In this document: positions 838-63,062 of the stretch, piece after piece | Layout: every line of letters begins with the position of its first letter | Position numbering within the stretch: position 1 is the first letter of the stretch | Assembly: GCF_000687475.1 (NCBI RefSeq) | Contig: NC_057318.1 | Coordinates: 558,001-622,000 of the forward strand | DNA: 64,000 nt | Direction: 5' to 3' | Origin: Ustilaginoidea virens | Lineage: Eukaryota; Ascomycota; Sordariomycetes; Hypocreales; Clavicipitaceae | The notes under the pieces: generated by a model | Databases searched by the model: none | What the model was told of the DNA's origin: nothing | Seen by the model: only the letters and a program-made list of their open reading frames with translations | Program-made: the position numbers and the translations under genes

Positions 838-1187
838 TATTGATATAAACTCGGGGTACCTAGTTGTACGTAGGGTCGCGCGCGTGGTATTATATACCGT
901 GAGGTTACTAAGTAAAGGATTTATTGACTTTACTAATAACTAACTATCTAAAAGGAAAGAAAGAAAGCAAAAGAGGGTAATTACACGATATGGCCTTTTT
1001 GTGCGTGCCGCTGTCACGTGCATCGGCGCAGTCGGGCCGGGCTGCCCGCGTGCCCTACCGGGCTTAGGGGTAAAGGGGCAAAAGGGGCCAAAGTGGCCAT
1101 ATCGTGCGCATCGGGTATGCGCGGCACATCCGTCGCAATATGCCCAATTAGTGCCCAATTGGGCACCTTGCGATAGCGATTCCGACA
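838..1187 (-). repeat. 3' LTR of E2 (family B)
   Basis: A 350-bp LTR on the minus strand. On the plus strand it starts TATTGATATAAACTCGGGG (TG mutated to TA) and ends GATTCCGACA. The purine-rich primer stretch follows at about 1188-1210, and the LTR-spanning hairpin (TCGGAATCGC against GCGATTCCGA) is present. The bases from 1188 to 1469 are 3' untranslated sequence with the GC-rich block found in every family-B copy. Confidence 0.93.
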
Positions 1188-1469
1188 CTAGCAGCTTCTC
1201 TCTTTATAGAAGTAAATATCGGAATCGCTAGGATGTAAGGCGCACATATAGAAAGAAAAGTGCGGCGCGGTCTCGGCAGGTTGTACCGGCGATAATATTG
1301 TCGCGCCGCGCGGCCGGCATTATACCGTACAGTCGGTATATTAAATATCGCAGCCAAAATAAAGGGGCAAAAAGGGGCAGTAGTAAACGCAGTAAAACAA
1401 TACAATATTGAATATAGGAAAATCCATTCACTTGCTACCTATGATATCACCAATACCTTCTAAACGCAG

Positions 1470-4363
1470 TCAGATATTAACCGGCCTCTTTACCCACCCT
1501 TCTATATGTATAATAGCCTGATTACGGTCGATAAAGGTCTTAAGGGCTTTATTCGGCATTCTTTTGGTTATTATATTAGTAAGGTTATTATTCCCGTTAA
1601 TCCAGCGAATCTTATAGATTTCCCGGCGCTCGTATAACTATCGCAAGGCTATAATATCTATTATGAGTCTCTTCTCTTTCGTAATGCCTAGCTTAATAAG
1701 GCATTCATATAACGAAAAAGAATCTATACATACAACAGTAGGGATCTTCGGTAATCCTAGCCTGCTAGTAATTATATTAAGGGTCGTGCCTATTATATAT
1801 ACGATATCGACCCCTTGCACTATACTGTACAGCTCCGAAGCGAGTGTGCTATGCATTATACGCTTACTCTTTATAGAGCTATAAGTAATAATATTACCGG
1901 TCAGCTGGAAGGTATTATTTACAGTATCTATCTTATTCCCTAGCACAATTATGTAACCAATCTGGGAGCTTAAATCTTTATTGTTAGCAAAGGATCCGTC
2001 AATAAATATAAAGATCTTAGCTGTGGTAAAGGCCAAATTGATGTACCGTAAGCTACGATCCTGGTTATCGCGCTGCTATTAAAGGCGCTTATTTAACCTC
2101 GCGATATCCTTAAGGTCAGGCTATTAATATTATACCGCGATAGACAGGTCGAAAGACGCCTCAAGCTGGCAGACTATAGCCATATAAGCACCGCAAGCGC
2201 GTTATTCGATATAATTACACTAGGCCGTAGGCGTATTCTTATCGATGGTCGCGATCTTTTTACTTTAACCTTTCTAGCGTAATATTATACCGTCAGCATT
2301 AGCCGTCAGTATATACCTATTAAATATTAGGGGTATAGTTGGTAATAGCTTCGTTTTAGGCTTGGCGTTAAAGCCTGCCTTAGTAAGCTCTAATTCTTCC
2401 TATTAGAAGAAGGTATTATCACTTAGGCTAAAGATATTATTAGTCTATATACCTACGATACCGAAGCATATATTAGTATCGCCAGTATAGTTAGGAGCGT
2501 TAGTACGGTTAGTATCGTTATTACCGGCGGATATTAGCAAACAGGGGTCGTAGGTTGATATAGTTATACCTAATTTCTTGCGATAGTGCTAGAAGTATAT
2601 CGCCTATTAGTAGGTGCCTGCCTCAGCTATTCCGTATAGTGGCTTTACCACTTCCATAATCGTATTATCGGGGTATTAATACGCTATCTGCTTAGGTAGT
2701 TTAGCGATAATCGATCTATTAAGGGTAGTAGATAACTGCATATAGGCCTATATGATATCACGTATCTAGAGAAATAAGCCGTAAAAACGTTATAGTGATA
2801 GGGCCAATAATATAAGTAACCGTTAACTAGCCTATTAGATTGTAGGGGACTGAGTTAATATCAATTGCTTTTTATTATCACTATAACTTTATATGACGAG
2901 TCGTAACTTCTTATACGGTATATCTATGCCTTTACCCTTAATTTCTCGTACTATACGTAAGTTAAATAGACGTTAGGCTCTATATTTACCGATATTAAAG
3001 GTAATAAATCGGAATATATTACGGGCCTATAACGCCTCCACCTCTATATAGTTAGACTATTCGAAGGGGTCTCTTAGGGTTATAATCTTTCCTTCTTAGT
3101 ATAATTAACTAATAAGCTGTAGGTCGGCTTGCTCTTTTGCGGTTAGGAAAAAGGCATTAATAATAGTGTCAAAAGCTATAGCATTAATAAGAGCTTCTTC
3201 TTAGTCCTTATTAATTATAACGTCGGATATCATATATGCTGGCGGTAGGGATAATAATACCAGCCTGACTTAATCAGACCTAGTGGCTGGCGATAGGTAT
3301 ATCGCGGCTATAGGTATTATCGATAATATCGCGGCTGTAGGTATCGTTAATAATATCTCGGCTGTAGGTATTATCGCGGCTGGAGGTGCGGGTGTAGCTG
3401 GTATCCTGACTTCTAGCCTGCCGGGGCGGGCCGGGCCTTTAGTATAGACGATATCTTCGGCATTATTAGGGTTGTAGTTATATAGCTTAACGACCGTTAA
3501 CTGGAATTTAACCAGGCTATATGGTATCTATACGATATAGGTCTTACTATTAAGGCTGATTAGCCGGTACGGCCTATACTATCCACCCTTTTCTCTTTAT
3601 ACCTATATATCTAACTATAGGGGTAGTCGGTAGATAGGCTGTATATTCGGGCCGTTCTATTAGGCAAGGGCATTATAAACTTGTCGCTTAGCGAGGCATT
3701 TCCTAGCTTCATTAGTGGCCTTTCGTAACGTTATAGCATATTATAATACTAATAAGCTAAGGGGTAAATTATCCGTAAGTCGAGGATATGCTCTAAAGAC
3801 TAATAATATAGGCACCAGACTATTAGGTCCAGCTGAGTCGTTAACAGTCTTTATAGTAAGCTATAATTTCTGTTCTTTTGTTATTAGGTCACCTACTTTA
3901 TTATTAACAATAGTGTAGGCTTTACGTAATAGGGCGTAGTATCTCTCGACTTTGCTAATGCTATTATAGGCTTCTATAGGAATTTCATCTATATTAATAG
4001 ATAGAAGCCGGGCATTATAGCGGAATTCGGCAGAAGCAAAATTAGGTCTAGTATCGTATACTATCTAATCCGGCAGGCTGAGGTATATATCGATCCAATA
4101 TTCCTTAAGGGCATTCTAAATATTATAGGCTTTCTGCCTTTATAGATTAAGGAATCTAGCTGCCTAAAAGCTTATCGCGGTATCCACAATATATAATACC
4201 GGCCGATTATCAATATAAAGGATATCGACGATAATTTCGTAATTAAATTAGCTAGTATCGTCATCCTTAAGCGTGAATTTAAATCGGCTAGGTGCCTTTA
4301 CGTTTATCTGGCATTAATAGCATATATAGGTGATCTTCTCGATAATATTATAGTCAATATCAT
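1470..4363 (-). pseudogene. E2 pol: integrase, RT and RNase H, broken
   Basis: Read on the minus strand from 4363 to 1470, this is the second half of the family-B polyprotein: integrase core and C-terminus (about 4363-3600), a linker (3500-3230), the RVT_2-type reverse transcriptase (3230-2090) and RNase H (2090-1470). RNase H retains IFIDGSFANNKDLSSQIGY and ASELYSIVQGVDIVY. The polymerase box, TDDT in better copies, reads TNNI here because two GAT codons became AAT, so RT would be dead. Many stops interrupt the frame. The final stop is TGA at 1470-1472. The other half lies at 18522-19844. Confidence 0.88.
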
Positions 4364-4612
4364 AGCGCTGACTTAGAAAAAAAAACTCTTCGCGATTTCG
4401 CCCGCACCTAGGTAGCGGCACGGAACCGCCTCTAAAATCAATTCTAATAATCCTAATCGCTTCCTCTCGTCTGTTTACCCCCCTTGCCTATAGCGCATCG
4501 CATCCAAAGAGTAGGCATAGCAGGCGCGAATAAAGTAATAGATATCGATAGAGGGAATAGGGGCGGCATTATATATAGCTACTATAACCCTACCACCACG
4601 ATCGCGAATAGC

Positions 4613-6066
4613 ATGCAGTATAACCAGACCGAAACCGAGCCTGCCTAAAAGCAGAAGCGACCCGCTACTATTATAATTAAAGAATCGATGAAAGAGCTCT
4701 AAGATTATATCCCCCTAGCGGTGCTAGGATAAATGCGAGAAATTATAGAAACTATAGCCGATATGGCCCGCAGTAAGGCCACCTCGGACCCTATCGGCAC
4801 CCTTACTAATACAATTTTGAAGACTATTAAAAAAGCTATTAAATTAGCCCTTTAGGATATCCCGAAATAGGCGCCGGCTACCACCTAGGCAAATATCGCG
4901 GCACGAGGACACGCCGCCATTATTATACCACCTTAATATACTATCGCTCCCCTTCCGGTCCTGCCATATATCTATAGGGAAATTTTAATTAAAGGCAATA
5001 GTATTAGCGAGGTCTTATATAACCGAATACCAGTCGAAATTATAGATACCATTAATAGAGCTACTACTAGGAATACCGCGATTGCAGTATATAGGCTATA
5101 TAGTGGCGATACTATTATCACCTTTACAGAAAAAGTAATAAAAAGTCTTATCGCCGATATAACCTAGGTCCGACCCGCCTTTAAGCAGGAGATAGAACTA
5201 AACTAATGCTTATTTAGTCTTATTATTAAGAATTTCCCTACTAGCTATATAGCGAATATCGTAACTAAAGAAATCTACCGAAACCTTACTAAAGCGAATA
5301 AAGAAAGCTTTATTAGAACCTCCCCCTACTACCTATATAGGACTGCTATACGTACGCCCCTAATTATAGGCATAAACTCTATTGACTTGACTAATAAGTT
5401 CTATAAGTCTAGTATTATCTACTAGGCAGAGATATTCGAAGCTGAACCTTATAATAATGCCTTATACCTTAAATAGTACTATAACTGCTTTAAGTTTGGA
5501 TATATCGCGGCCTACTATATAGCGGCCCCGCGGTGCAGCCGATATAGCGCGGAAAGGCATCTAAAAGGGGAGTAGGCCTACCTAATAGTCTTTTACGGAT
5601 AAAGGGAGTTATACCTTAATTATAAAGGCCCGTACTTAGTATAATCCTGCCTCTATAGAACCTCGAATAAGTAATAGGATTTAGCTAAGAATTCTTATAC
5701 TAGCCGACCTAGGCTCTTTATAGCGCCTCTTATAATATCTATAAATATTACTCTTATTGCAGAATAGAACCGATATAAAGCAGCTAGCGCCTCGCCCCTA
5801 AGGGAACTAATCGAGCGTATTATCTTAAGAAGATCCTTCTTATATAAATATAGCCGCCGCCTTAGCCGAAGGGGCTTTATCTCTAGAGGAATATTTAACG
5901 CCAGATTAAACTATACCTTTACCGCGTTCTTATAACCGGTCCTAATATTAGGATAGACTAAGACCCTATCGGCCTTAGAATCTATACTTACTCTGGCCCC
6001 GACCTCTACCTCTACTATAATTATCGATATACTGCTGCTACCGACCCCTATATACCTATCTGCATA
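4613..6066 (+). pseudogene. LINE ORF1 (gag-like RNA-binding protein), broken
   Basis: From the ATG at 4613 one frame runs MQYNQTETEPA to about 6066, broken only by TAA and TAG codons. The middle region, TSDPIGTLTNTILKTIKKAI, would be helical. Cys-rich knuckles lie at about 5480-5560 (YNCFKFGYIAAYYIAAPRC then SRYSAERHL), with some expected Cys or His replaced by Tyr (TGC to TAC type changes). Family members use this protein to coat the LINE RNA. The end is uncertain. I place it near 6066, where it would overlap the start of ORF2 in another frame. No frameshift is seen. Confidence 0.7.
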
Positions 6067-6847
6067 ATATTAGTCTTCTATTAGAATATATAAAAGAAAA
6101 CCTCTTTTATACGAATAGTATTTTACTACCGAAGCGAACCTAATATTATAGTAATCTAAAAACCTGCCGCGCCTAATTGCGCCCTGCCGAGCCTAAGCCT
6201 TAGTAAGTATATATTAGCAGCCTATAGCGGACGAGCGGCGATATATATCTATAAGTGGTATAGTCCCGGTATATAGATCACTAAGAAAGGACCTAATTAG
6301 TATAAGGTCTGCCTCCTTAAAACCGATATTTACTCTATTTATTCCCTAGGCTATAAATATAATTAGACTATCCCCTTTATGGACCTTATAAGGCTCTTGC
6401 CCTAACCCTAAAGTATATTTATCGGGGACTTTAATATATATTATCCCTTATAGGATAGCCTAGATAGAACCTTACCTAATATTAATACCCTTTTCGACTT
6501 TATAATGCAATAGAGACTCAGCCTAGCGACCCCCTATAGCAAAATTATATAGTAAGCGCTAAGTAAAAAAAATAGCACTATAAACTATACCTAAGTTATA
6601 TAAGACCTCACTATTAAATACCTTAGTAATATAGACCTCGCCGGGTTTGACTATATCCTATAGCTTATCTATATCGATACTAGCAACCTATAAGCCGCTA
6701 AAGCCCACCCGAAAAATAGCTAGAAATCCCTTAACTAATACCTCGCTTAGGCAGAAGCTAAAAACCGCCTTACGCCTACCGCTATTATAGCCCTACTTAG
6801 CTCTCCCGAAGAAATAGATATATATACTAAATGGCTTACTTACTAAC
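6060..6847 (+). pseudogene. LINE ORF2 part 1: endonuclease domain, broken
   Basis: This frame differs from ORF1. It includes ALPSLSLSKYILAAYSGRAA (about 6181-6240) and the endonuclease signature IGDFNIYYPL at 6421-6450, equivalent to GDFNxHHPxW in the exonuclease/endonuclease/phosphatase family. It then gives NINTLFDFIMQ and NSTINYTQVIQDLTIKYL (Gln read where a stop now stands). The enzyme nicks target DNA to start reverse transcription. The true start is not clear; the domain already appears to begin near 6060. It is cut at 6847 by E4 and resumes in the same frame at 14384. Confidence 0.8.
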
Positions 6848-7542
6848 TGTTGAAATCAGCGCCTTTTTAGCTGTATTTTGGTACTGGTCTCGCTACCGTA
6901 CGACGTCTTTACGTTGAGATATCGCGGTGGCTATACCAGGCGCTATAGTGGGGCACAGCGCCCCACAACGCCGATTACAGTGGGCCACAGCGCCGGTCAC
7001 GGCACCGGCACAGCGCCCCACAGCCGGCCACAGCGGCCGGTCACAGCGGGCCACAGGGCCCACAACAGGCGGCGCATTTCTACGGGATTACCAAATGGGC
7101 AAACCAGCACTTTCGGCCTTCTACATACAGTCACCCGCTACACCGGTCATTTACGGCAGACCGATAAAGGGCTTCCGGCCCATACGGCAGGCTATTATAG
7201 GGCATCCGGCACACCGCTATAAGCCACTGGGCTTGGTTGGGTATGCACTGGGTAGGATATTGGGCAGACCGACTTTTCGTCGGGTTTTTTCGCTATTTTT
7301 GCGGTTTTTCATTATTTTCAACTACTTTTTCAAGATGGTAGAAATATACCTAAAATTCCCTTTTTCTAGCTAGAATAGTCACCAACAATTAGAATTAGAT
7401 TTCCCTGACATCTTTACTCTGGTCAACCTCTTGTGCGCTTTAAATCTTTAACCAGCTCTTTATTTTATTCTGCAACGCCTTGTACGCCACTATCGGTATC
7501 TAGTACATTTCCAACAGTATTCTGAATCACCATTTTGCAATA
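6848..7542 (+). repeat. 5' LTR of E4
   Basis: Starts TGTTGAAATCAGCGCC and ends TTTTGCAATA. The 3' copy ends TTTTGCAACA, so the last CA has become TA here. It contains runs of CACAGCGCC/CACAGCGGCC-like units at about 6950-7070. An open frame at 6878-7222 recurs in the other LTR and is a by-product of the repeat, not a gene. Confidence 0.95.
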
Positions 7543-7556
7543 GGTTATAAGCCCGG
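7543..7556 (+). other. Primer binding site of E4 (initiator tRNA-Met type)
   Basis: Directly after the 5' LTR comes GGTTATAAGCCCGG. It is one G-to-A change from GGTTATGAGCCCGG, which E8 keeps and which is complementary to the CCGGGCTCATAACC anticodon arm of initiator tRNA-Met. Drosophila copia uses the same internal tRNA region. The leader from 7557 to 7827 has nothing else that I recognise. Confidence 0.75.
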
Positions 7557-7827
7557 TGTCTTAAGGCTTCCAGCTTAAGACTTTTTTTTACGCTAACTTA
7601 GGATTTTAACGCATTTAGCAGCTAACCTTCTAGAAATCTACTAATAAGGGACTAATCATCCTAGATTTAGGAACCTAACTACCACATCAAGCTGCAATAC
7701 ATCCTTTTTGCAATAGGATTTTCTAAGGTTATTCCTTAACGCAGCTTTCTTCTAGTTTTATCTAGATTTTCAGTCTTAATTTTCTTTGCATTTTTAAAGA
7801 CTTTCCGGCACCTTTTCTCTTCCTATA

Positions 7828-10800
7828 ATGGCTAGTCAGAACGTTCCTACTAATAACCTAGGCCATAATAACCCAGGCCACAATAACCCAGGCTACCAAA
7901 TCCCTAATACGGCAGAGGTAGAAGAATCTGATAATGACTAGGAAATTGCCCAGCTTAGGGAAGACTAATAGGAAATGAGAAAAGAATTCAACTATAAATT
8001 TAATCGAATTAATTCTAAAATCGATTTTTTGGCTAATAAGGTGGGCACCTTAGTAGACAGACTAATCAAGCCTGCTGCTAGCCCACTATCCTAGGATATA
8101 ATGGATATAGATACCTTCCAAACCCCTATAGGTAAAGGAAATAACCCACCATTACTATCCAAAGCCCAGCAGCAACCCCTGCCGGTTCCATCTAGCATTA
8201 GCAGCCAAGTCAGCGCTATAGCTATCAAGGAACTAGCTAAAACAGCCAACGGATTCCAAAAATCCTAAAAGCTAAGGGGGGCATCTAACTTCGACCAATA
8301 GAAACAGGCCCTTATAATTCAACTTAGGGCACTTAATATCGCCAAATTTATCGAAGAACCTTCTATTGCTAGCAAGTTTAACGATTCAGAGTAAGCACTT
8401 TTACTATTACTTATCAAGAATAGTTATACAGAAGGACCAGCTGCCGCTATCAACTGGTGCACTAACCCAGAGTCAGCCTTTATGTTACTCACCAAACAGT
8501 ATTCTCACTCATCAGACGTATAGCAGACCCACCTATACCCTGCCTTCCATCAACTAAATTTTATAGGCTATAAGGGTACCTTAGAATCTTTCAACGCCTC
8601 CTTTAATAGCTACCTATCCAGGCTGCAAATTTTAGGCTCCTATATACAACCTTTCGACCAAATCAGCCAGTATTTACATGCTGTAGAAGGGGTCTTTTTT
8701 CAGTAGGTAGAATGGCACCGCACAATAATAAGAATCGCCTATACTTAGGGAAATACATCAAATATTAACCTGCAATTTTATATAGTTGATTTACTGGAAG
8801 AATAATGCATTAAAAGGTCATTAGTAGTAAGGGCTACCACCTACCTCGCAAAGGTTAAGGGTGCCGCTACTAATAGCAACAGTAGCAAGCCAGCTAGTAA
8901 TAACACTAGTAAGGGTGGTAGAAACACTACCACTAACGCCAATAAAAAGAACAAATAGGGGTCTTCTACCCAATAAGGGTCTTCTTCAGCTACATAAAGT
9001 AAGCCGGAAAATAAGAAGAAGAATAAAGAATAGAAAGATTCAGCTAATAAAGCAGATACCCTATAAAAGACCGATAAAAAGGAAAAGACTATTAATTCCT
9101 TTATATTAGGAAATTATAACACTCTAAGTCTTATACCTAGTGAGATAGCCTATTCTTCCTTCCAGGACCGCGAATATATGCAATTTTTAGCTACTAGCTA
9201 TAGTGTATAATCCGGTGGGAAAACGCCAACAGATTCTTTGCTCTACGATACTGGTTCTACGGTGTATATCATCAATAATAAAAAGCATTTCACCTACTTC
9301 CAACACTATACCGGAAATAGACCAGTCATCAGCACAAGTAGTGGCCCAATCAAGCCCAGTGGGTGGGGCATAGCGCGTTTTACCATACTATAGGCCACCA
9401 ACCCACCTTAATAGGGCACCTTAGAGCTAACCAACGCCCTCTTCATACCAGCTTTTGATATCAACATCTTTAGCGGCGTTAAATACTATCTAAATCGTGG
9501 CAGTATTTAGGGCTAAAGCCTAGTTAATAGCAACAATAAGTGTATTAGGCTTTTTAATTTTAAGAAGTATGGCTTCTTTTTATAATAGAAAGGGGTAGAT
9601 TCGCCGTTTTTACACCATACCAGCCAAAATTACCTGGCTATATATAATATCTCGGTCGAAATACCTGCCCTAGCTAACCTAGAAGAATACGAGGAATATC
9701 CCCTGCCAGAGGATTTACCTACCCCACCAGCTGACTCGGACCTTCCACTTCCACCAGCTAATTCGCAAGCTAACCCACCAGCTAGTCCTAGTTTTTCGGT
9801 AGTACCAATAGAGGCTACTATTCCCAATACAGCCTAACCACCACAGAGGGCCCCGGTCGCCCTTAACCCAGCCCCAATCACAATACCAGCTACTAATACA
9901 GAATATCAAAAGCTGCTATTATTAGCCGGACTTTAGCATATCCGGCTTAGGCATATCAGAATCTAACTTTTAAAGAAAACCTGTGCATCAACCATAGGGT
10001 TACCTAATCTCAGTAAGGTAAAGGATTCTAATTTCAACTGCATCGCCTATAAAAGGGCAAAGTCAGTTCGGCGTTTTACATCAGGGGCTATACCAGACCC
10101 TATGCATTATTTGGATATTATAGAGGGTGATATCTTCCAAATTAACCCTCTACTATACAACAAACGCCCTATTTGCCTCATCTTAGTTAATCGGAAATCA
10201 CGCTTCCATTAGGTATATTTACTACCTAATAAGGAGGGACCTACGGTATTTCCAGTATTACAGGGGTTCTTCCAAGGTCTTAGGAATCGCTACGGCAAAT
10301 CAGCTATTGAATTCCACTATAATAGTAGCAAGGAAATCAATAATGTTATCACAGCCTAGCTAGCTCTTAAGGGTATAGATTTTTTAACCTCTTCCCTTTA
10401 TATTCATAAGCAAAATAGGTTAGCAGAACGCTTTATACGGGTTATTATTAACCGACTTAGAGCTACTATACTTTAGTCTCGGTTACCTTCTTACCTTTAG
10501 TCTATAGTGATTCTTAGTATTACTACCTTAGTAAATCTAATAGTAGTTATAAACTATTCTTCGTCACCTTTCGAGGAATTAAAGAAGGACTTTCCGGAAA
10601 TTACGCACTACTACCTACCCGACCTTACTAGCTTTAGGGCTATTAGTGCGGCTGTAGAGGTATTAATCCCTCTAGAAAAACGGGTCATCAGCCACAAGCT
10701 AGCCCCCCGGACCGAGTCAGGTAGGTTACTAGCTACGCTAGGTAACGGCACCTACCTCGTCTACATCCTATATCGCCGGGTCGTCACTAAGACCTCTTTT

Positions 10801-13596: not shown

Positions 13597-13675
13597 CATC
13601 ATCATCTTTTTTTTCTGATTTTTTATAGGGTTTCTTTCTTTCATTCTAACGCTAGGATTAGCCATGTTGCTAATC

Positions 13676-13683
13676 AGAGGGGG
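13676..13683 (+). other. Polypurine tract of E4
   Basis: AGAGGGGG sits immediately upstream of the 3' LTR, the standard place for plus-strand priming. The same tract (CCCCCTCT on the plus strand) borders the 3' LTRs of E6 and E8. Confidence 0.85.
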
Positions 13684-14378: not shown

Positions 14379-14383
14379 CTAAC

Positions 14384-48662: not shown

Positions 48663-48932
48663 CTAGCAGCTTCTCTTTTTATAGAAGCAAACATCGGAAT
48701 CGCTAGGATATAAGGCGCACACATAGAAAGAAAAGTGCGGCGCGGTCTCGGCAGGTTGTGCCGCCGATAATGCTATCGCGCCGCGCGGCCGGCATCATAC
48801 CGTACAGCCAAAACAAAGGGGCAAAAAGGGGCAGCAGTAAAAGCAGTAAAAGCATCAAATGCTCATAATATTAAACATAGGAAAATCCGTACACTTGCCA
48901 CATATAATATCACCAATATCTTCCAAACGCAG

Positions 48933-52430: not shown

Positions 52431-52771
52431 TGTCGGAATCGCTGTCGCAAGGTGCCCAATTGGGCACATTGCGACGGATGTGCCGCGCACACCCGATGCG
52501 CACGATGTGGCCACTTTGGCCCCTTTTGCCCCTTTACCCCTGAGCCCGGTAGGGCACGCGGGCAGTCCGGCCCGACCGCGCCGAAGCACGTGACTACGGC
52601 ACGCACAAAAAGGCCACATCGTGTAATTACTCTTTTGCTTCCTTTCTTTCCTCTTAGTTAGTCATAGTTATAATCAAAGAAGTAATCATACCTTTGACCG
52701 GTGACCTCACGGTACTTGATACCACGCGCGCAACCCTACGTACAACTGGGTACCCCTTGGTGAAACCAACA
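52431..52771 (+). repeat. 5' LTR of E10 (family B)
   Basis: Starts TGTCGGAATCGCTGTCGC and ends GGTGAAACCAACA. It is probably the best-preserved family-B LTR here. It is CpG-rich in the middle (GGGCACGCGGGCAGTCC and similar). The 3' partner differs at about ten sites, mostly TG or CA against TA, with a few at CpG. Confidence 0.96.
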
Positions 52772-53283
52772 CTGATCAGTGAAGTTGAAGTTCACTTCAT
52801 AGATTAGCTAGGATAACAAGAAGAGGCGATTTAAAAAGATCGTGCTAATAAGGAACGTGATTTAGCCTAATTCAGTCGAAACGGCTTATATGTTACAGAC
52901 CAAGGGATAAATTAATTGTGTCTAACCTTCCCTACTCGTCTATCACGAGGAATAATCGCTAAATATCACACTAATAGTGTAACAGCCAGTAGATACCATT
53001 AGCAGGCATAAACGCAGGTTCTTACGCAAGCGACTCAGAGCCTCATAACGGTAAAAAACCTATTTACCGATATATAGTCAAATAAGCAATCGGAACGCCT
53101 ATAATATCCTGCCTGATTATTACTTCCTTCCTTCTTTCCTTTTTTTACTACTTATAACCTTCTTTTTATCAATTGCTTTCTTTTTTCTACCTTCTTTTTT
53201 AATTACTTCCTTTTAATACCTACGCCAAATGCTCCCTATCTCTCTGCCTTTTCCACCTTATCCTTACCTCTATTAATATCATA
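52772..53283 (+). other. 5' leader of E10
   Basis: Starts CTGATCAGTGAAG, with no tRNA 3'-end complement (no TGG start) that I can recognise. CACTGATCAGTG (52770-52781) is a perfect palindrome across the LTR edge and is followed by the AGTGAA...TTCACT hairpin. Other hairpins are ACACTAATAGTGT near 52,968-52,980 and CGGTAAA...TTTACCG near 53,040-53,070. CTTCCTTCC-type repeats fill 53,120-53,215. No gene is seen. Confidence 0.65.
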
Positions 53284-56200
53284 ATGGAGGCACCACTACC
53301 GGAAAAGCTTAACCCTTTCGCTAAGATTATTATAAAAGACTGGATCGATTCGATAGACCAAATTGACCTTATAAATGCTACGGACGAACAGTTACATAAT
53401 CGTATCGCCTACCTCATCAATAGTTATACAATAGGCGATGAGAAGGATGATGATCTATAGGAATAATTCCGTAAGGATTATGATAAGTGGACCGAGGAAC
53501 TATTTAGCCGTATCAATAAACGGCTCCTATAGGAATTCCGAACAACCCTATAGGAACGTGGGGTATATGTTGGAAGCACAGGATCATCAATAATTAGGAC
53601 CCTTCTCCACTGCATACAATAAGAGCATATGCCTGAATGGCCTCAAGAAGAAATAGACCTCCAACTTGCATACAAAACCTTTATATCCCGGTTAAACCCA
53701 GATAGGGAACAATCAGTCCCTACTGCTTATACCGAACGGGAGATATAAATGAACTAGGATGCCCCCTCTATCACAAGCTCAAGGAATTTACTTCCTGCCA
53801 CAATTGTTCGAATACCCTTACGGATACTATCATAAATACCCTTACGAACACCCTCGCGATTACCCTCGCGAAGACCTTTATAAGCCCCTTCGACCCCTAG
53901 GGACTTTGCAATACTAATAGCATAACAACCCCTCATCCCTCTATCTATATTAAAGAAGGCCCCTATTCCTACCGAAGAAGAAAGGGGCCGGCCGCTATAA
54001 CAGAAAGGGAAAGCGCCTATTTACAGGCCGCTATTTAAGATAGGGGAAAGCTCCCGACAGCAACAACAGCACACAACAGACGATAACTATAGCCCGACCG
54101 ACCAAATACTTCATCCTAAGGGTTATACCCCTAGCTGGGCTAGCCGAGGCGGCTATCCCAATGCCCCTTAGAATCATAGTATGCCCATAAGAGCCAGAAG
54201 TCAGGTTATACGCCCCGATGATGTGCTTCCCTTAATAGAGGGACCCGACGGTGATACGCTCGAAGTCACCAATATCAATATTCCCTAATATACCGCTACC
54301 AGCGGCACCAGGCAAGCCCCTAATATTAATAAAACAGCTGCCCCTAATGCCAGATATCACGAATTATGGTATCGCAGCCACAACCTATAGGCCCAGATGC
54401 CTCAACCATAGGCTCAAATGCCTCAACCACCGGCTCCAATACCTCACCCGATAATACCAAAGATAGGCACGGCACCAGACCCCTCCCGGCATTATCGGCC
54501 TACCTAGGCCGATGAATGGACCGTTTTAATGGGAGGACCGGTAAACCTAGACCGACCCGGGTTATAGGATAACCCAGCTAGAGATCCCGCTAGCCTACCG
54601 TAAGGCTACCGATAAGCCGTTCTAGAATACCCTCCAGAATAATAATACTACCAAAAAGATTATACCCGAAGAGCCTACGCAGAGGCCAGGTTTAATAATA
54701 TTTCGAAGAAGATATCTGACCTCTTATGCAGCTATCGCACAGAGGATAGATATAGTGGCAAAATAGATAACTTCCTTATACCAAAGGTAGTATCCTTTAA
54801 GAGTAAGTGCCGCCTTCTAGGATTGCCCGATTATACACTCATAAAAGCCTTTCAAATCATACTAATCGGCGATATTGAGACGTATTACTTTAATAATATC
54901 GAACGCATTCGTAATACCCTCACTTTCGACGATATAGTGTGTAAAGTTAAGAGCTATTTCGAGAATGAGAGTATAAAGCAATTCTATTTGCACTGTTGGA
55001 ATAGAATAATGCTTTAATTAACTATCGCAAAACATCCTAATAAGTCAAAGCTTGAATGCCTTAATATCCTACTAAAGGAACTTCAACGCCTATATTATGG
55101 TCTTTTTCCCCCCTTTATAGCTGATATAGAGCTTTATCGATAAGTACTTAACGCTGTCAGGGATACCCTTGAGTGTAGCCAGGCTATGTATCGTCATGCC
55201 TCTATATTCGAAGGCCTTGCCGCTGACCTATGGCGATCCCTTTCTATCTATAAGACTACCTATATAACTCAACAGCATCAATTCCTTCAATAACAATAGC
55301 AGCCTTAGCAACATCAGGATATTGAAGATGCTGATATTAATGATAATATAGCGTTATTTACAGATCGTAGATATAGTTAATCCTATAACCGGTATTAATG
55401 CCCCTAACGATACAGACCCCCTTAATGGCAATAATAGAATCGCGCCTTTCCAGCTAGGCCCCGTTAAAGAAGATGCTTCGTTTGCAATAAATTAGGATAT
55501 TGGTTATCTAACCATACTAATAAAGAGCAATAAGAATCAAAGGCACGATGGCTAAAGAACCGCTCTAACCGGACCACTTTTGATGACAAGAAATTCTGCG
55601 TTTTCCTATAGGAATATAAAGGGACCGCCGATTAAGCCCTTAAAGATGCCGATTTTGATGATATTGTTGAAGATGTTAAAGTCATGATGGCAGGGGTTAC
55701 ACATTAGGATATAGAGGACGCTGTCGCACCACAATTTATAGCCACTCAGTATTTCTTAGCCCCTATATAAATAGAACTATCACCTTCTTTATCTATTGAG
55801 ATATTATAAGCCCTGCAGGATGAATTATGCCGATATGCCTTTCTGCAAATTGACCCCTTCCGAATGCCCTTACCGAGTTCTGCCTTTCTAGAAGAAGAAC
55901 ATTATAGTGACCATACCTTCCGCGGAATCCTCCCGGATACTAGCGCCTCCGGCCTATCTATAGCAGGTATAGGGCAAGCAAAAGCCCTAATAAGAGTGAT
56001 GAAATCTTTGACAATTGAGTTAATGGATAAGCAGCATACCATTAATTTTGGAGCAGGTTCTGCTATATCTTCTAGTATATTAAATATCCCGATGATATTC
56101 GGCAATATCCCCTTCCACATTCTCGATAGTAGTATTCCCTTTCTTTATTCTATTACGGATATAGATAGGATAGGCGTAAAACTGGATAATATTGATAACT

Positions 56201-59200
56201 TGCTTATTAAAGGGGATATTAAGGTTCCAATTATTAGGAAATAGGGACACCTATAGTGGACTCTTAATACTATGGATACTGCAGCCTTCTATTTATCGTT
56301 ATAAGAAATCCGTCAGCTTTATCGTCGATTCGGGCACCCCTCTATCAATAGGCTTACCAAATTGCTTCAGCAGGCTAGATATGATAATGATATTGACCGC
56401 AATATTATCGAGAGGATCACCTATATATGCCATTAATGCTAGATGAACGTAAAGGCACCTAGCCGATTCAAATTCACACTTAAAGATGACGATACCAGCT
56501 AATTTAATTACGAAATTATCGTCGATATCCTTCATATTGATAATCGGCTGGTATTATATATTATGGATGCCGCGATAAGCTTCTAGGCAGCCAGATTCCT
56601 TGATCTATAAAGACAGAAGGCCCGAGACGTTTAGAATGCCCTCAAGGAATACTAGATAGATACGTACCTCGGCCCGCTGGATTGGATTGTTTATGATGCT
56701 GGCCCCAATTTCGCCTCCGCTGAATTCCGTCATAATGCCCGGCTTCTATCTATCAATGTGGATGAAATTCCTGTAGAAGCCCACAATAGTATTGGCAAGG
56801 TCGAAAGATATTACGCCCCGTTACGCCGAGCCTATACTATTGTTGATAACGAAGTAGGCGACCTAATAATAAAGGAATAGAAATTATAGCTTGCTATAAA
56901 GGCTGTTAACGATTCCGCTAGACCTAACGGTCTAGTGCCTATGTTATTGGTCTTTGGGGCATATCTTCGACTTACGGACGATTTACCCCCTAGCTTATTA
57001 GTATTACAATGCGCTTTGACGTTACGAAAGGCCACTGATGAAGCTAGGAAATGCCTCGCTAAGCGATAAGTTTATAATGCCCTCGCCCAATAGAACGGCC
57101 CGGACACGCGGCCTATCTACCGACTACCCCTATAATCCGATATATAGGTATGGCGAGAGAAAGGTGGCTGGCACGGGCCGTACCGGCTAATCAGCCTCGA
57201 TAGTAAGACCTATATTATATAAATGCCATATAGCCCGGTCAAGTTCCAGTCTACGGTCGTTAAGCCTTATAACCACGACCTTGATAATCCCACTACCGAT
57301 GATGCCGAAGATATCGTCTATGCCGAAGGCCCGGCCCGCCCCGGCCGGCTAAAAGTCAGGATACCGGCTCCAGCTACAGCCGCACCTCTAACCGCGATGA
57401 TACCTGCAGCCGAGACATCATCGACGCCTGCAGCCGCGACATATCCGTCGCCGGCCATTAGCTCGGATCAGACCCGACTAGTATTACCATTACCACCGCC
57501 AGCACGTATAATATCCGACGTCATAATTAATAAGGACCAAGAAGAGGCTCTCGTCAATATTATCGCTTCTAATACCGTTATTAACGCCTCTTTCCTAACC
57601 GCTAAAAAGCAAGCCGACCTGCAGCTTGCTAGCTAATTACGCCAGGAAGGCAAGATCACGACCCCTGGAGACCCTTTTGAGCAGTCGGACCGTACAGAGA
57701 TTGAAGCATTATAGGCCCGTAATGTGTTTAGATTTGTCACCTTTGATATTAGTCAATATAGAGCCTAACGCTTATTTAACTCACGTATGGTACGGGAAAT
57801 CAAAGGTAAAGGCATGGATACGCCGTATGAGAAATCACGACTCGTCATATAAGGTTATAATAATGATGAAAAGCAATTGATATTGATTCAGTCCCCTACA
57901 ATCCAACGGGCTAATTAACGGCTACTTATATTATTGGCCCTATTACTATAACGCTCTCACGGTCTATTCCTTTGGATACGGGATATCACGCAGGCCTACG
58001 TGCAGTTATTAACTACCCTCAATCGGTCGATTATTGCCAAGCTACCTAAGCAAATAGCACACTAATACCCTAATAACACTATTATAGAAGTGGTGAAGCT
58101 ACTATACGGAATAGCTGAGGCAGGCACCTACTGGTGGGCGATATACTTCCGGCACCATCGAGAGAAATTAGGCATGACTACATCAACCTACGACCCCTAT
58201 TTGCTGATATCCGCCGGTAATAACGATATTAACCGTACTAACGCTCCTGACCAGGCTGGCGATACTAGCACATGCTTCGGTATCGTAGGTATGCAGACTG
58301 ACGATACCCTTGGCCTAAGTGACGACGCCTTCTTCCAACGGGAAGAATTGGAGCTTACTAAAGCAGGCTTTAATGCCAAGCCTAAGACGAGGCTATTACT
58401 AACCGTGCCCCTAATATTTAACGGATGTATGCTAATAGTCACTACCGATGGCATAATGATATTGTGCTAGAAAGGCCAAAGCAAAAAGATTACCACCATC
58501 GATAAGAATGCGCCTATAGTATAGCGTAATTATATCGAGCAACGCGCTTGCGGTGCTTATATGGCTACGGTCTGCTAGCCCGAGGCGTCTTTTGACCTGT
58601 CTGTCGCAGTATAATACCAGCAACCTAACCCTGAAGATATCGCGAGGTTAAATAAGCGCCTTTAATGGCAGCTTAATAACCAGAATCGCGGCCTACGGTA
58701 CATCAATTTGGCCCTTAATATAGCTAAGATCTTTGTATTTGTTGACGGATCCTTTGCCAATAATAAAGATTTAAGCTCCTAGATTGGTTACGTAATTATG
58801 CTAGGGAATGAGGCAGATACTGCGAATAACGCCTTCCAGCTGACCGGTAATATTATTACTTACAGCTCTATAAAGAGCAAGCGGGTAATGCGCAGCGCAC
58901 TCGCTTCGGAGCTGTATAGTATAGTGCAAGGGGTCGATATCGCATATGCGATAGGCACGACCCTTAACATAATTACTAGTAGGCTGGGATTGCCGAAGAT
59001 CCCTATAGTTGTGTGTACGGATTCGTTTTCGCTGTATGAATGCCTAGTTAAGCTAGGCACTACTAAGGAAAAGAGGCTCATAATAGATATTATGGCCCTA
59101 CGATAGTTATACGAGCGCCGGGAGATTTATGAGATCTGTTGGATCAATAGGAATGATAATCTCGCCGACGTAATGATTAAGGGAACGCCTAATAAAGCCC

Positions 59201-59274
59201 TTAAGACCTTTATCGACCAAAATCAGGCTGTTATATGTATGGAAGGGTGGGTAAAGAGGCCGGTTAATGTCTGA
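53284..59274 (+). pseudogene. E10 gag-pol polyprotein, one 1996-codon frame with about 70 stops
   Basis: ATG at 53284 (MEAPLPEKLNPF) to TGA at 59272-59274 in one frame. Gag is about residues 1-725, with a charged, Pro-rich middle. The zinc knuckle CFVCNKLGYW starts at residue 731 (the third Cys now Tyr). The protease LPDTSAS is at about 883-889; DTG has become DTS. Pre-integrase LYRRFGHPS is near 1010. The integrase core has VYDAGPNFASAEF and GKVERYYAPLRRAY. An Ala/Pro linker follows (57,350-57,450), then RVT_2 reverse transcriptase with LLYGIAEAGTYWWAIYF and polymerase box TDDT (from about residue 1672), then RNase H (VFVDGSFANNKDLSS, LADVMIKGTPNKAL). The stops I read are TAA or TAG. Confidence 0.94.
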
Positions 59275-59519
59275 CTGCGTTTAGAAGGTATTAGTGATGT
59301 CATGTGTGATAAGTGGGTGGATTTCTTTGTGTTATTTTTACTGCATTTGCTGCTTTTACTGCGTTTACTGCTGCCCCTTTTTGCCCCTTTATTTGGCTGC
59401 GATATTTAACATACCGGCTGTATGGTATGATGCCGGCCGCGCGGCGCGACAGCGTTATCCACGGCACAACCTGCTGAGACCGCGCCGCACTTTTCTTTCT
59501 ATATGTGCGCCTTATATCC

Positions 59520-59576
59520 TAGCGATTCCGATATTTGCTTCTATAAAAAGAGAAGCTGCCAGTGTCGGAATCGCTA
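59520..59576 (+). other. Polypurine region and LTR-spanning hairpin of E10
   Basis: TAGCGATTCCGA (59520-59531) pairs perfectly with TCGGAATCGCTA (59565-59576), and inside it GCTTCT (59537-59542) pairs with AGAAGC (59551-59556). The structure encloses the purine-rich AAAAAGAGAAGC and the first bases of the 3' LTR (starts 59563). All family-B copies in the window that reach this point keep most of it. Confidence 0.75.
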
Positions 59577-59903
59577 TCATAAGGTGCCCAATTGGGCACA
59601 TTGCGACGGATGTGCCGCGCATACCCGATGCGCACGATATGGCCACTTTGGCCCCTTTTGCCCCTTTACCCCTGAGCCCGGTAGGGCACGCGGGCAGTCC
59701 GGCCCGACCGCGCCGAAGCATGTGACTACGGCACGCACAAAAAGGCCACATTGTGTAATTACTCTTTTGCTTCCTTTCTTTCCTCTTAGTTAGTCATAGT
59801 CATAATCAAAGAAGTAATCATACCTTTAACCGGTGACCTCACGGTACTTGATACCACGCGCGCAACCCTACGTACAACTGGGTACCCCTTGGTGAAACCA
59901 ACA
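59563..59903 (+). repeat. 3' LTR of E10 (family B)
   Basis: 341 bp, same ends as 52431-52771. It is followed at once by GTAAG, after which E9 resumes. Differences from the 5' LTR include gatgtgg to gatatgg and cacaccc to cataccc. Confidence 0.96.
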
Positions 59904-59908
59904 GTAAG

Positions 59909-62262
59909 GGCTAGGAAATATTGTGTGGTTGTAATTTGTGGTGTGGCAGCCTTCTCTGCATCCTATTGTATATCCCCTGCTATTATTACCTCGATATTAC
60001 CGATAATATCGTTAAGGTCGGCCTTTATTTCTTCTTCGAGGCCTTAGGGGCTGGGCTCTTCGTATTCCTATAAGAAAATACGGAATTTCTTATTATTAGG
60101 GGCAGTACGGTAGGATCGGTTCTTCATCCATTAGTCCTTTAATTCTTATTGCTCTTTAGTAGAGTAATTAAATGACTAATACCCTAATTTATTGCAAACG
60201 AAGTAACGTTTTTAATGGGGCCTATCTAAAAGGGCATGATTCTATTATTAATACTATTAATATGGGCCAAATCGGCGTTAAGGGGGTCTATATTATTAGG
60301 GGCATTAATACCGGTTATAGGATTAACCGTATCTACAATCTATAAATAACGCCATATTATCAGCGATATTAATATCTTCAACATCTTGATATTGCTGAGG
60401 CTATTATTAAAAGAAATAATGCTATTAAGTTATATAGGTAGTCTCATAGATAGAAAAGGATCGCTATAGGTTAGCAGCGAGGCCTTCGAATATAGGGGCA
60501 TATCGATATAGCACCTAGCTATACTTAGGGGTATCCCTTATAGCGTTAAGGATTTATCGGTAAAGCTCTATATCAGCTGTAAAGGGGGGAAAAAGACCAC
60601 GATATAGGCGTTAAAGTTCTTCTAATAGGATATTAAGGCATTCTAGCTTTAACTTATCGGGATATTTCGCGATAGTTAATTAAAGTATTATTTTATTCTA
60701 ATGGTATAAATAGAATTGCTCTATACTCTCATTTTCGAAATGGCTTTTGACTTTATAGACTATATCGTTAAAAGTAAGGATATCGCGAATGCATTTAATA
60801 TTATTAAAGTAATATATCTTGGTATTACCGATAAGCATGATTTAAAAGGCTCTAGCGAATGTATTATCGGGTAATCCTAGTAGGCGGCACTTACTTTTAA
60901 AAGAGATGACTTTTGGTATAATAAAGTCATCCATTTTGCCGCTATATCTATCCTCTATGCGATAGCTGCGTAAGAGGTTAGATATCTTCTTCGATATATC
61001 ATCAAACCCGGCCTCTACATAGGCTCTTTGGGTATAATCTTCTTAGTGGTATTTTATTCCGGAGGGTATTCCGGAACGGCTTATCGGTAGCCTTACGGTA
61101 GGCTGGCGGGAGCTCTGGCTGGGTTATCCTATAACCTAGGTCAATCTAGGTTTACCGGTCCCCCCGTTAAAACAGTCCGTTTATCGGCCTAAGTAGGCCA
61201 ATATTAGCGGGAAGGGCCAGGTGCCATGCCTATTTTTAGTATTGTCGGATGAGGCGTTTGGGCCTATAGGCCGCGATACCGCGATTCGTGATATCTGGCA
61301 TTAGGGGCGGCATTGGCTTAGAGGGTATTATTATTGGGGTCCTCTGTTGAAGGAAGCATATTATCGGGGCCTATGACCCGACCTCTATTAGGTATGCTAT
61401 GACCTCGAGGGGTATTGAGATAGCCGCCTTAGCTAGCCCGGCTAGGGGTATAACCCCTAGGGTGTAATATTTAGTCGGTCGGGCTATAGTCTTTGTCGGC
61501 TGTTGTATGTTATTATTGATGGTGCCGGGAGCTTTCCCTTGTTTCGAATAGCGGCCTATTGTAAATAGGCGTTTTCCCTTTGGGTTGTTAGGACCGGCCC
61601 CTTTCTTCTTCGGTAGGGGCAGGGGCAAGAGGCTTTTTCGATATAGAGGGGGGAATAATAGGTTATTATAACTGTGATTGGGCCACTATTAGTATTATGA
61701 AGTCCCTTATTAAGGCTTGTGATGATTTTCTTGAGGGCCTTACTATAGTAGGTGCTCGTGATAAATTCCGTAAGCCTGTGACTTCCTCGTCGAAATTGCC
61801 GATAGGTACTAATGCTTCCCTATAAGGGTTGAGTCGTGACCGGAATATCTTACGGCCTAGCTGACGGTCGATCTCTTTTTGAGGCTATTTAGGGTTCTAT
61901 TGTTATTGAAGGCATTCCATTAAGGTAGGTATTATAATAGAGCCTAATGCTCCAATATACATACCGTAATCCTATAGGTATATGCGGAATTCGCATAGGA
62001 ATAGAGGATTAACGCAGTTGAATAGTTATTTATCCTATTCACTATAATCTTCGTGGAATAGTTCCCATAGGTCGTTGTTAATAATATAATCCTTCTTATA
62101 GGTATAGATTAAGAAGGCCAGGCGGTTGTATAATGCCACAGTAGTGGCATCAGGGGTAATTGGCTCTATTGTAGTGGCCTAATTATTATCGAGTAAAGGG
62201 GTAAATCGCTATAGCCTTTCGGGCAATACCGGTTGTAATGTTAATAATCGTGATTGTACTAT
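59909..62262 (-). pseudogene. E9 Gag and knuckle region, broken, with one frameshift
   Basis: The upstream part of E9 gag-pol. The start is tentative: an ATA at 62260-62262 that may be a mutated ATG, in frame with QPVLPERL. Gag resembles other copies (ALYNRLAFLIYTYKKDYIINNDL; PTEEERGR near 61,600). At 61051-61056 the copy reads AATAAAAT in element sense where E7 and E10 have AATAATAAT, a loss of one base that shifts the frame. Downstream (KISNLLRSYRIEDRYSGKMDDF near 60,985) the frame is the one continuing into pol. The open stretch 61371-61628 is a shadow of this region. Confidence 0.8.
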
Positions 62263-62797
62263 AGTGTTAAGAGGAGGGCTTAAGAGGGGGGGGGGGGGTG
62301 TGTTGCAAGGAGTGCAATATTCACTCTTGCAAGGAGTGTAAGATTCGGTCCTCTTATAAGGAGTGTAAGATTCGTGCCTTATAAGGTTGTTATAAGGAAT
62401 ATAAGAGGGCTTTTATTAGTAGGGGTAAAAGAGAGAAAAGAAGGGGTTAATTAGCAAGATAACCATTTAATGGAATAGGTTATTTGCCTCCTATAGTAAG
62501 CAGGTGACCGTTTAATGGAATAGGTCAGCTGCCTCTTATATATACTAAGGGTATCTTTAAAGATCGTAATAGTTAGTATGTTTTCTTCCTTCGTAATAGA
62601 CAGAAGTAGAAGAGGTCTATATCATTCTTCTAATTAGTTAGCAGTATAACCGTTTAATAGAATAAGTTATCTGACTTCTTAATTAGTACGATTTGCAACG
62701 GAAATCGTCTCTTCGAGAGTAATCTTGCTGATCTATAATGCACTATTCTTTGCGGGATATAATTATCCTATAAGTGGTGGTTATCACCACTGATCAG
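62263..62797 (-). other. 5' leader of E9 with G-run, short repeats and three like hairpins
   Basis: 535 bases without a gene. A run of 13 G lies at 62286-62298. Repeats of GCAAGGAGTGTAAGATTC type fill 62,302-62,375. Three similar hairpins with loop RTTTAATRGAATA are at 62454-62487, 62500-62532 and 62641-62675. Next to the LTR, AGTGGTG...CACCACT and the palindrome CACTGATCAGTG occupy the primer-site position (about 62,773-62,799). Confidence 0.7.
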
Positions 62798-63062
62798 TGT
62801 TGATATAAACTCGGGGTACCTAGTTATACGTAGGGTCGCGCGCGTGGTATTAAGTACCGTGAGGTCACCGGTTAAAGGTATGATTACTTCTTTAATTATG
62901 ACTGACTAACTAAGAGGAAAGAAAAGAAGCAAAAGAGTAATTACACGATGTGGCCTTTTTGTGCGTGCCGTAGTCACGTGTATCGGCGCGGTCGGGCCGG
63001 ACTGCCCGCGTGCCCTACCGGGCTCAGGGGCATAGGGGCAAAGGGGCAAAAGTGGCTAAAGT
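62798..63062 (-). repeat. 5' LTR of E9, truncated by E11
   Basis: The first 265 bases on the plus strand of a GATATAAACTCGGGG-type LTR, matching 48307-48575. It is cut where E11 begins; the missing end should lie beyond E11, outside the window. The last five bases, AAAGT (63058-63062), are the presumed E11 duplication. Confidence 0.9.

What the first reader, a model, noticed from the sequence alone, without database searches (positions are those of the whole stretch)
838..63062. Five-deep retrotransposon nest with nearly every junction readable
E8 sits in E7, in E6, in E5, in E2. Four junction pairs give exact duplications (ACATC for E8, AGTAG for E7, GTAAT for E6, GTAAG for E10), and the LINE (15 bp) and E4 (CTAAC) form a side branch. 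Removing each insert plus one duplication restores a coding length divisible by three for E6 (4974 bp), E7 (5928 bp) and the E5 part (4920 bp). This gives a relative insertion clock that does not depend on sequence divergence.
Basis: seen in the sequence. Interest (0 to 1): 0.75.

Follow-up and report, generated by a model that had tools for sequence, protein, structure and literature searches.

The report
Six-level nest of fungal jumping genes
In the rice false smut fungus, fourteen LTR retrotransposons and one LINE-like element sit inside one another up to six levels deep, and the order in which they landed can be read from their junctions, while the mutations between their ends look like the mark of a fungal genome-defence process rather than of time.

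Summary
The nest is real and larger than reported. Flanks mapped separately to relatives overlap by exactly the duplication length at 14 of 17 junctions. The stretch 62798-63062 is not the end of E2 but E9's 3' LTR, cut by E11. E2 runs on to 113970 (C3:671970), outside the window, and closes with ATCTT; 15 elements including E2, six levels deep (E2>E5>E9>E11>E13>E14).

The host is Ustilaginoidea virens. Across 19 LTR pairs there are 288 transitions and 2 transversions, 217 transitions at CpA against 70 expected: the signature of repeat-induced point mutation (RIP). LTR divergence therefore records mainly RIP, not years, and nest order is the sounder clock. RIP load in family B follows nest order in 17 of 19 ancestor-descendant pairs, with one clear exception. 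E8, E14 and E18 are only lightly hit. Nested fungal transposon clusters with RIP are already described; this is a large, unusually legible member of a known kind.

The parts
838..4363 (-). E2 (family B, copia-like), first piece with its left LTR; E2 as a whole is 838-113970 (C3:558838-671970)
   Evidence: TSD ATCTT at 833-837 and 113971-113975; LTR pair 838-1187 / 113632-113970
18507..19844 (-). E2, second piece (begins with the LINE duplication copy); continues at 96733-97552 and 112387-113970 outside the window
   Evidence: mapping; junctions
4364..6847 (+). LINE-like element, 5' piece, inserted in E2
   Evidence: 15-bp duplication TATAGTCAATATCAT at 4349-4363 and 18507-18521; overlap 15 in three of three references
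6848..14378 (+). E4 (family C, Ty1/copia) inserted in the LINE-like element; LTRs 6848-7542 and 13684-14378
   Evidence: TSD CTAAC; tblastn with the E8 ORF, 51-66% identity; LTR pair 19 ts, 1 tv; no reference for flank mapping
14379..18506 (+). LINE-like element, 3' piece ending in a (TAA)n tail
   Evidence: 318 candidate places in the genome, 40 scored
19845..25599 (+). E5 (family B), left piece with its 5' LTR, inserted in E2; E5 is 19845-96732
   Evidence: TSD ATTAA; overlap 5 in three of three references
47817..48306 (+). E5, middle piece between E6 and E9; last piece 95539-96732 lies outside the window
   Evidence: maps to reference B 5791-6291, continuing the left piece
25600..29581 (-). 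E6 (family A, Ty1/copia), left piece with LTR 25600-26362, inserted in E5
   Evidence: TSD GTAAT; flank overlap not equal to 5 (-4, -4, -85); tblastn residues 634-1414 of the E8 ORF
44423..47816 (-). E6, right piece with LTR 47054-47816
   Evidence: tblastn residues 1-634 of the E8 ORF, split at the E7 insertion
29582..31066 (-). E7 (family B), left piece with LTR 29582-29922, inserted in E6
   Evidence: TSD AGTAG; overlap 5 in E8 and L021
38392..44422 (-). E7, right piece with LTR 44082-44422
31067..38391 (-). E8 (family A, Ty1/copia) inserted in E7; LTRs 31067-31786 and 37672-38391, 3 differences in 720; open frame 32709-36953, ended by a TAA inside the reverse-transcriptase match
   Evidence: TSD ACATC; Pfam RVT_2, rve, gag_pre-integrs, Pol_BBD, SH3_retrovirus (rve, gag_pre-integrs and SH3 below their curated cut-offs); stop
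48307..52430 (-). E9 (family B), first piece with LTR 48307-48662, inserted in E5; E9 is 48307-95538
   Evidence: TSD ACTAT; overlap 5 in three of three references
59904..63062 (-). E9, second piece ending in most of its 3' LTR (62798-63062), cut by E11; the rest of that LTR is 95443-95538
52431..59903 (+). E10 (family B), uninterrupted, inserted in E9; LTRs 52431-52771 and 59563-59903
   Evidence: TSD GTAAG; overlap 5 in two of three references, 1 in the third
63063..64000 (-). E11 (family B), first part, inserted in the 3' LTR of E9; E11 is 63063-95442 and holds E12, E13 and (inside E13) E14 outside the window
   Evidence: TSD AAAGT; mapping 63063-66104, 78390-79970, 92477-95442

Best explanation
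This is a stack of successive retrotransposon insertions in a transposon-rich block of a Ustilaginoidea virens chromosome. Three families of LTR elements (A and C of Ty1/copia type, B probably so) and one LINE-like family landed one after another, each leaving a 5-bp target duplication (15 bp for the LINE). Later insertions hit earlier ones, so containment gives a strict order: E2 first; then E5, E15 and the LINE; then E6 and E9 in E5, E4 in the LINE and E16 in E15; then E7 in E6, and E10 and E11 in E9; then E8 in E7, and E12 and E13 in E11; then E14 in E13. Order between separate branches is not fixed. After insertion, repeat-induced point mutation changed C to T, mainly at CpA, in the repeats, which broke many reading frames and made the two LTRs of each element differ. 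LTR divergence therefore counts mainly RIP exposure rather than years. E8, E14 and the neighbouring E18 landed late and have had little RIP. Shown: junctions, containment, transition and CpA bias, presence of a Rid1-like gene. Inferred: that RIP in sexual cycles is the cause, and the late timing of the lightly hit elements beyond what nesting proves.
For: All 14 LTR elements and the LINE of the E2 nest close with exact duplications, with no crossing intervals among 22 units. Separately mapped flanks overlap by the duplication length at 14 of 17 junctions with a reference. Over 19 LTR pairs and 9591 sites there are 288 transitions, 2 transversions and 3 indels; the rate per C is 0.192 before A, 0.048 before G, 0.015 before T and 0.004 before C. 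By contrast, E8 against a long-frame relative gives 234 transitions to 62 transversions (Fisher p 9e-18). Against that relative, E6 and E12 have T at 27-32% of CpA sites, E8, E14 and E18 pieces at 7-13%. CpA-type load in family B falls with nesting in 17 of 19 ancestor-descendant pairs (permutation p 0.011). LTR divergence agrees with nest order in 33 of 39 ancestor-descendant pairs (p 0.006). The genome has a Rid1-like frame of 598 residues.
Against: Flank mapping missed at E6 in E5, E15 in E2 and E11 (E11 closes against E9's own LTR). RIP load is not a strict clock: E1 has a lower load than its insert F1 (difference -0.074, interval -0.113 to -0.036), and E9 is slightly lower than E11. Direct parent-child LTR divergence is concordant in only 11 of 16 (one practically a tie), sign test p 0.105. 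Non-CpA transition columns give almost the same order (16 of 19), so part of the load may be shared ancestry between subfamilies. Mutation outside repeats was not measured as a control. RIP was not observed experimentally, no reads were available and no second strain was compared.
Confidence: 0.9

Rival explanations
1. The LTR differences are ordinary mutations accumulated over time (including deamination of methylated CpG), so LTR divergence is a usable clock.
For: LTR divergence agrees with nest order in 33 of 39 ancestor-descendant pairs; CpG transitions are raised relative to CpC and CpT.
Against: 2 transversions against 288 transitions; the CpA rate is four times the CpG rate and about fifty times the CpC rate; 5 of 16 direct pairs are inverted, though none significantly; divergences fall into a low group (0.4-0.5%) and a high group (2.6-7.3%) with nothing between (grouping made after seeing the data).
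Confidence: 0.05
2. The nest is an assembly artefact: copies of a few abundant families were joined wrongly.
For: The families have hundreds of candidate copies, which makes assembly hard; no reads were available to me.
Against: A wrong join would not be expected to give matching target duplications on both sides of 22 of 22 units (2 of 462 in mismatched pairings; ends not placed blind), nor flanks that meet to the base in relatives at 14 of 17 junctions. Family B copies differ by 10-18% in transitions inside, which should be resolvable by long reads (inference).
Confidence: 0.03
3. Some low-divergence pairs (E8, E14, E18) look young because gene conversion made their LTRs alike, not because they landed late.
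For: Gene conversion between LTRs is proposed for plants, where about a quarter of nested pairs are inverted (PMC7251063, abstract and passages).
Against: The internal regions of E8, E14 and E18 pieces also lack most of the CpA load seen in E6 and E12, and E8 keeps a 1414-residue open frame. Conversion of the LTRs alone would not do that.
Confidence: 0.07
4. Blocks were copied as segmental duplications rather than built by independent insertions.
For: Several same-family copies lie close together, and E12 is a tandem with three LTRs and two overlapping units 96.7% identical.
Against: The duplications differ from element to element (21 distinct 5-mers in 22 units), and family B copies differ by 1-4% transversions inside. 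Only E12 fits a duplication, and it has a single outer target duplication.
Confidence: 0.02

Closest known systems
Nested transposable-element clusters of Mycosphaerella graminicola (PMC4522978; abstract, passages and section 8 seen)
   Same: LTR retrotransposon as base element in 49 of 78 clusters, target duplications of 4-6 bp in Table 4, non-LTR insertions, CpA-to-TpA RIP bias, and the authors' own caution that LTR ages may be overestimated because of RIP.
   Different: Their 78 clusters span 7.5-63 kb with 2-7 elements, and the deepest bracket in Table 4 is four levels; this nest spans 113 kb with 15 elements and six levels, and each of its 15 elements has its two duplication copies.
Nested LTR retrotransposons in plants as a relative-age test (PMC7251063; abstract and passages)
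   Same: [quoted passage not shown] 25% (1042 of 4126) of nested pairs are inverted.
   Different: There the disturbing process proposed is gene conversion; here it is RIP-type mutation. Inversions here: 5 of 16 direct pairs.
crapaud LTR retrotransposons of Podospora and RIP (PMC10787394; passages)
   Same: A fungal LTR family with many LTR subfamilies, RIP and some nested copies.
   Different: Nested copies were filtered out or counted as fragments in the passages I saw; nest order was not used there as a clock.
Repeat survey of Ustilaginoidea virens strains (PMC13233505; passages)
   Same: Same species; LTR elements make up 12.9-18.3% in five of the six strains tabulated (4.0% in the sixth).
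   Different: It lists Ty1/copia at 0.04-0.06%; the terms 'repeat-induced' and 'nested' do not occur in its main text. Families A and C here are copia-type, and A has hundreds of candidate LTR places.

Membership tests
Ty1/copia LTR retrotransposon (families A and C) | Paired long terminal repeats with TG..CA-type ends | tested here: met
   E4, E6, E8: LTR pairs of 695-763 bp; C ends TGTTG..CAACA; A ends TATTG..TAACA, so A starts TA and not TG
Ty1/copia LTR retrotransposon (families A and C) | Short fixed-length target duplication | tested here: met
   5 bp in each A and C element of the nest (E4, E6, E8, E12, E14, E15)
Ty1/copia LTR retrotransposon (families A and C) | Copia-type RT (RVT_2) with integrase upstream of RT | tested here: met
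   E8 ORF: RVT_2 136 bits, over its cut-off, at 1174-1272; rve at 718-812, E 5.7e-7 but 30.2 bits against a cut-off of 32.6; E4 matches the E8 ORF at 51-66% identity
Ty1/copia LTR retrotransposon (family B: E2, E5, E7, E9, E10, E11, E13, E16) | Copia-type RT | tested here: inconclusive
   RVT_2 E 0.0015 in E10 and 0.00094 in E13, gag_pre-integrs 0.0013 in E13, all below curated cut-offs; the other six copies were not scanned whole; LTRs and 5-bp duplications are met
LINE (non-LTR retrotransposon) | No LTRs, 3' simple-repeat tail, longer duplication | tested here: met
   15-bp duplication and (TAA)n tail; no terminal repeat pair in the self-comparison
LINE (non-LTR retrotransposon) | LINE-type reverse transcriptase | tested here: inconclusive
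   No Pfam hit in three forward frames of the window copy; only RVT_1 E 0.0069, below cut-off, in one relative
Repeat-induced point mutation (RIP) | C-to-T changes, CpA-biased | tested here: met
   288 ts: 2 tv, CpA rate 0.192 against CpC 0.004
Repeat-induced point mutation (RIP) | Confined to repeats | not tested
   No unique DNA was compared
Repeat-induced point mutation (RIP) | Rid1-type cytosine methyltransferase in the genome | tested here: met
   PF00145 matches at C3:6028435-6029316 inside a 598-residue ATG frame; relatives listed include 'rid1' of Drechmeria coniospora, 49% over 85%, best listed 55% (Conoideocrella); no U. virens protein is named among the best 120 listed. Activity not tested
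Repeat-induced point mutation (RIP) | Mutation arises in the sexual cycle | not testable with these tools
   Needs crosses
Nested TE cluster | Inner element flanked by its own target duplication inside a continuous outer element | tested here: met
   (14 of 17)

The most novel reading that the evidence does not exclude
The nest is a stratigraphic record of RIP itself. Insertions fall into two strata: those that went through heavy RIP (2.6-7.3% LTR divergence, mostly at CpA) and those that landed after most of it (E8, E14, E18; 0.4-0.5%, little CpA load inside). If this holds across the genome, RIP became rare or weak (less sex or less efficient RIP) before the latest burst of family A, and nests with verified junctions can be used to count RIP per insertion interval. 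I lowered this from 0.35 on checking: all seven LTR differences of E8 and E14 are at CpA, and E8's frame is ended by a TAA, so the upper stratum is lightly hit, not untouched.
Probability: 0.3. Interest if true: 0.55.

Novelty: new member of a known kind. Interest (0 to 1): 0.42.

Why it matters
LTR divergence is the standard way to date retrotransposons. Here it is almost entirely RIP-type transitions, so dates from it would be wrong by an unknown factor, and the near absence of transversions (2 in 9591 sites) suggests, without a calibrated rate, that the stack is young. A nest whose junctions close gives an order that owes nothing to substitution rates, and so a way to ask how much RIP each insertion interval brought and when RIP last acted strongly. 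It also suggests that copia-type elements of this fungus are under-annotated.

Tried and rejected
Rejected: E2 ending at 63062 (that LTR is E9's). Disfavoured: family B as gypsy; no RVT_1 hit listed falls in C3:558838-671970, but only 150 of 221 candidates were scored and the list is cut; the weak Pfam matches of B are copia-type. Led nowhere: Pfam on ten short open frames (no hits); Rfam and tRNA scans of the window (no hits); nine minus-strand frames of E10 (no hits); Pfam on the window copy of the LINE-like element (no hits); the literature search (0 papers). The listings showed no paper on this nest or on nested RIP elements in U. virens; only the top rows of the longer ones were listed, and papers outside that library would not be seen. 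Five of 18 left-hand LTR entries (between -56734 and -42946, inside E18) could not be paired and were dropped. A wider test on 400 kb more of contig C3 was not possible.
Full report
What was claimed.

Where it is. The window is C3:558001-622000 of a 37.16 Mb, eight-contig genome. A 473-residue frame 104 kb to the right of the window is identical to a Ustilaginoidea virens protein listed as dynactin subunit 4, so the host is the rice false smut fungus; the strain is not known to me. The genome is full of such elements: 681 candidate places for the family B LTR (40 scored), 811 for the family A LTR (40 scored), 295 for a family B protein piece (150 scored) and 318 for the LINE-like element (40 scored).

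The junctions. Self-comparison gave three LTR families, which I call A (LTR about 720-763 bp), B (about 330-356 bp) and C (about 695-716 bp). Fetching 100 kb on each side and mapping pieces to natural uninterrupted copies closed the rest. E5 ends at 96732 (ATTAA), E9 at 95538 (ACTAT), E11 at 95442 (AAAGT) and E2 at 113970 (ATCTT). The E2 nest holds: the LINE-like element with E4 inside; E5, holding E6>E7>E8 and E9, with E9 holding E10 and E11, E11 holding E12 and E13, and E13 holding E14; and E15 with E16 inside. With E2 that is 14 LTR elements and one LINE-like element, six levels on the longest branch, with no crossing intervals. A neighbouring nest lies just to the left: E1 (-28055 to 816) with F1 and F2 inside, and further left E17 with E18 and a solo LTR inside.

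Is it more than chance? Own-pair 5-mers match in 22 of 22 units, mismatched pairings in 2 of 462. Ends were partly placed using the duplications and five left-hand LTR entries that found no partner were dropped, so this is not blind. The independent test maps 150 bp on each side of an insertion separately to other copies of the host family. Eighteen junctions were listed; one (E4 in the LINE) had no reference. In 14 of the other 17 the overlap equals the duplication length in the best-matching reference; for E10 and E13 one of three references disagreed (1 and 11). E6 in E5 misses (-4, -4, -85), E15 in E2 overlaps by 10, 7 and 7, and E11 could not be judged there because its flank leaves the LTR; against E9's own 5' LTR it closes with 5. 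The E8 frame aligned to E6 breaks at residue 634, at the E7 insertion, and the reading phase carries across.

62798-63062 is 97% identical to 48307-48571, E9's left LTR, against 86% to E2's left LTR. E2's right end is outside the window. The divisible-by-three argument finds support only for E6; E5 and E7 have no long frame in the window and their family has only sub-threshold copia-type matches.

What the LTR differences are. Over 19 LTR pairs (14 of the nest, 5 of the left neighbours) there are 9591 compared sites, 288 transitions, 2 transversions and 3 indels; 217 transitions are at CpA where 69.9 are expected without context. E8 against a long-frame relative shows 234:62. This is the RIP signature. 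The genome has PF00145 cytosine methyltransferase matches at two places, both in open frames; one is related to Rid1 (598-residue frame; listed relatives include 'rid1' of Drechmeria coniospora, 49% over 85%; no U. virens protein named among the best 120 listed). TpA/ApT is above 1 in all 26 blocks of 4 kb of the 104 kb scanned, as expected after RIP, but no unique DNA was measured for comparison.

Nest order against divergence. For direct parent-child pairs, LTR divergence agrees in 11 of 16, one of these practically a tie (E15 and E16, 23/716 and 11/343); the five inversions (E2/E5, E6/E7, E9/E11, E11/E13, E1/F1) have p from 0.24 to 1. Over all ancestor-descendant pairs it agrees in 33 of 39 (permutation p 0.006), and without E8, E14 and E18 in 23 of 29 (p 0.042). 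Family B load at CpA-type columns agrees in 17 of 19 (p 0.011; direct pairs 7 of 9, p 0.062), at other transition columns in 16 of 19; E1 against F1 is a real inversion (interval excludes zero) and E9 against E11 is within error. So RIP load follows insertion order loosely. It is a counter of exposure, not a strict clock.

Two groups. E8, E14 and E18 have LTR divergences of 0.40-0.54%; the other 16 lie at 2.6-7.3% with nothing between. The grouping was made after seeing the data, and the high group is itself heterogeneous (p 0.0085). The three low ones are family A, but E6 and E12 of the same family are in the high group. Inside, E6 and E12 carry T at 27-32% of CpA sites of a long-frame relative, against 7-13% for E8, E14 and pieces of E18, part of which is subfamily difference. 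The low group is not untouched: all three E8 and all four E14 LTR differences are at CpA, and E8's frame is ended by a TAA inside the reverse-transcriptase match. Three family A copies on other contigs (L021, L022, L023) differ from one another by at most five bases in 7215, so the family moved recently.

How it works. Copia-type integration makes a staggered cut that leaves 5 bp, and target-primed reverse transcription of a LINE leaves a longer duplication, here 15 bp (established knowledge of these families, recalled, not tested here). Lack of selection against insertions in dead repeats would concentrate survivors in such blocks (offered as a possibility for Pseudocercospora, PMC13041039, passages). 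RIP then mutates the repeats.

Comparison. Mycosphaerella graminicola has 78 nested clusters of 7.5-63 kb with 2-7 elements, RIP, and the same caution about LTR ages (PMC4522978). [quoted passage not shown] So the kind is known; this example is bigger than those in that fungal list and closes at every element. A survey of U. virens strains lists copia at 0.04-0.06% of the genome (PMC13233505, passages), which looks too low given these families.

Verdict. It is ordinary in kind and unusual in legibility. Interest 0.42.

Noticed in passing
window coordinates 66105-78389 (C3:624105-636389), right of the window: E12 is a tandem with three LTRs; its two overlapping units are 96.7% identical and share the same internal deletion, inside one outer duplication AGTTT. 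The middle LTR is closer to the first (2.0%) than to the third (4.2%). Unequal exchange after insertion is likely.
   Followed up: partly
L002:3076-3634: A 559-bp stretch with 209-bp direct terminal repeats 98% alike sits inside F1; it looks like a miniature terminal-repeat element.
   Followed up: no
genome-wide, e.g. C6:2803651-2809035, C1:2316506-2321891, C2:975246-980631: Several family A LTR pairs among the 40 scored places lie about 4.66 kb apart (start to start) rather than 6.6 kb, suggesting a shortened, probably non-autonomous derivative.
   Followed up: no
family B LTRs, e.g. 29582, 63063 against 48307, 79971: Two LTR subfamilies (ends TGTTGGTTGCATC and TGTTGATATAAAC) differ by 15-20 transversions in about 340 bp; E16 is intermediate (6-10) and may be a recombinant.
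   Followed up: partly
-35316 to -34552, -30037 to -29279, -17079 to -16730: Three solo LTRs (families A, C, B) with exact 5-bp duplications, so LTR-LTR recombination also acts here.
   Followed up: partly
-56734 to -42946 (C3:501266-515054): A tangle of C- and A-family LTRs inside E18 that I could not resolve into elements with duplications.
   Followed up: no
published repeat table for U. virens (PMC13233505): Copia is listed at 0.04-0.06% of the genome although LTR elements are 12.9-18.3% in five of the six strains; families A, B and C may make up part of the rest (inference).
   Followed up: no
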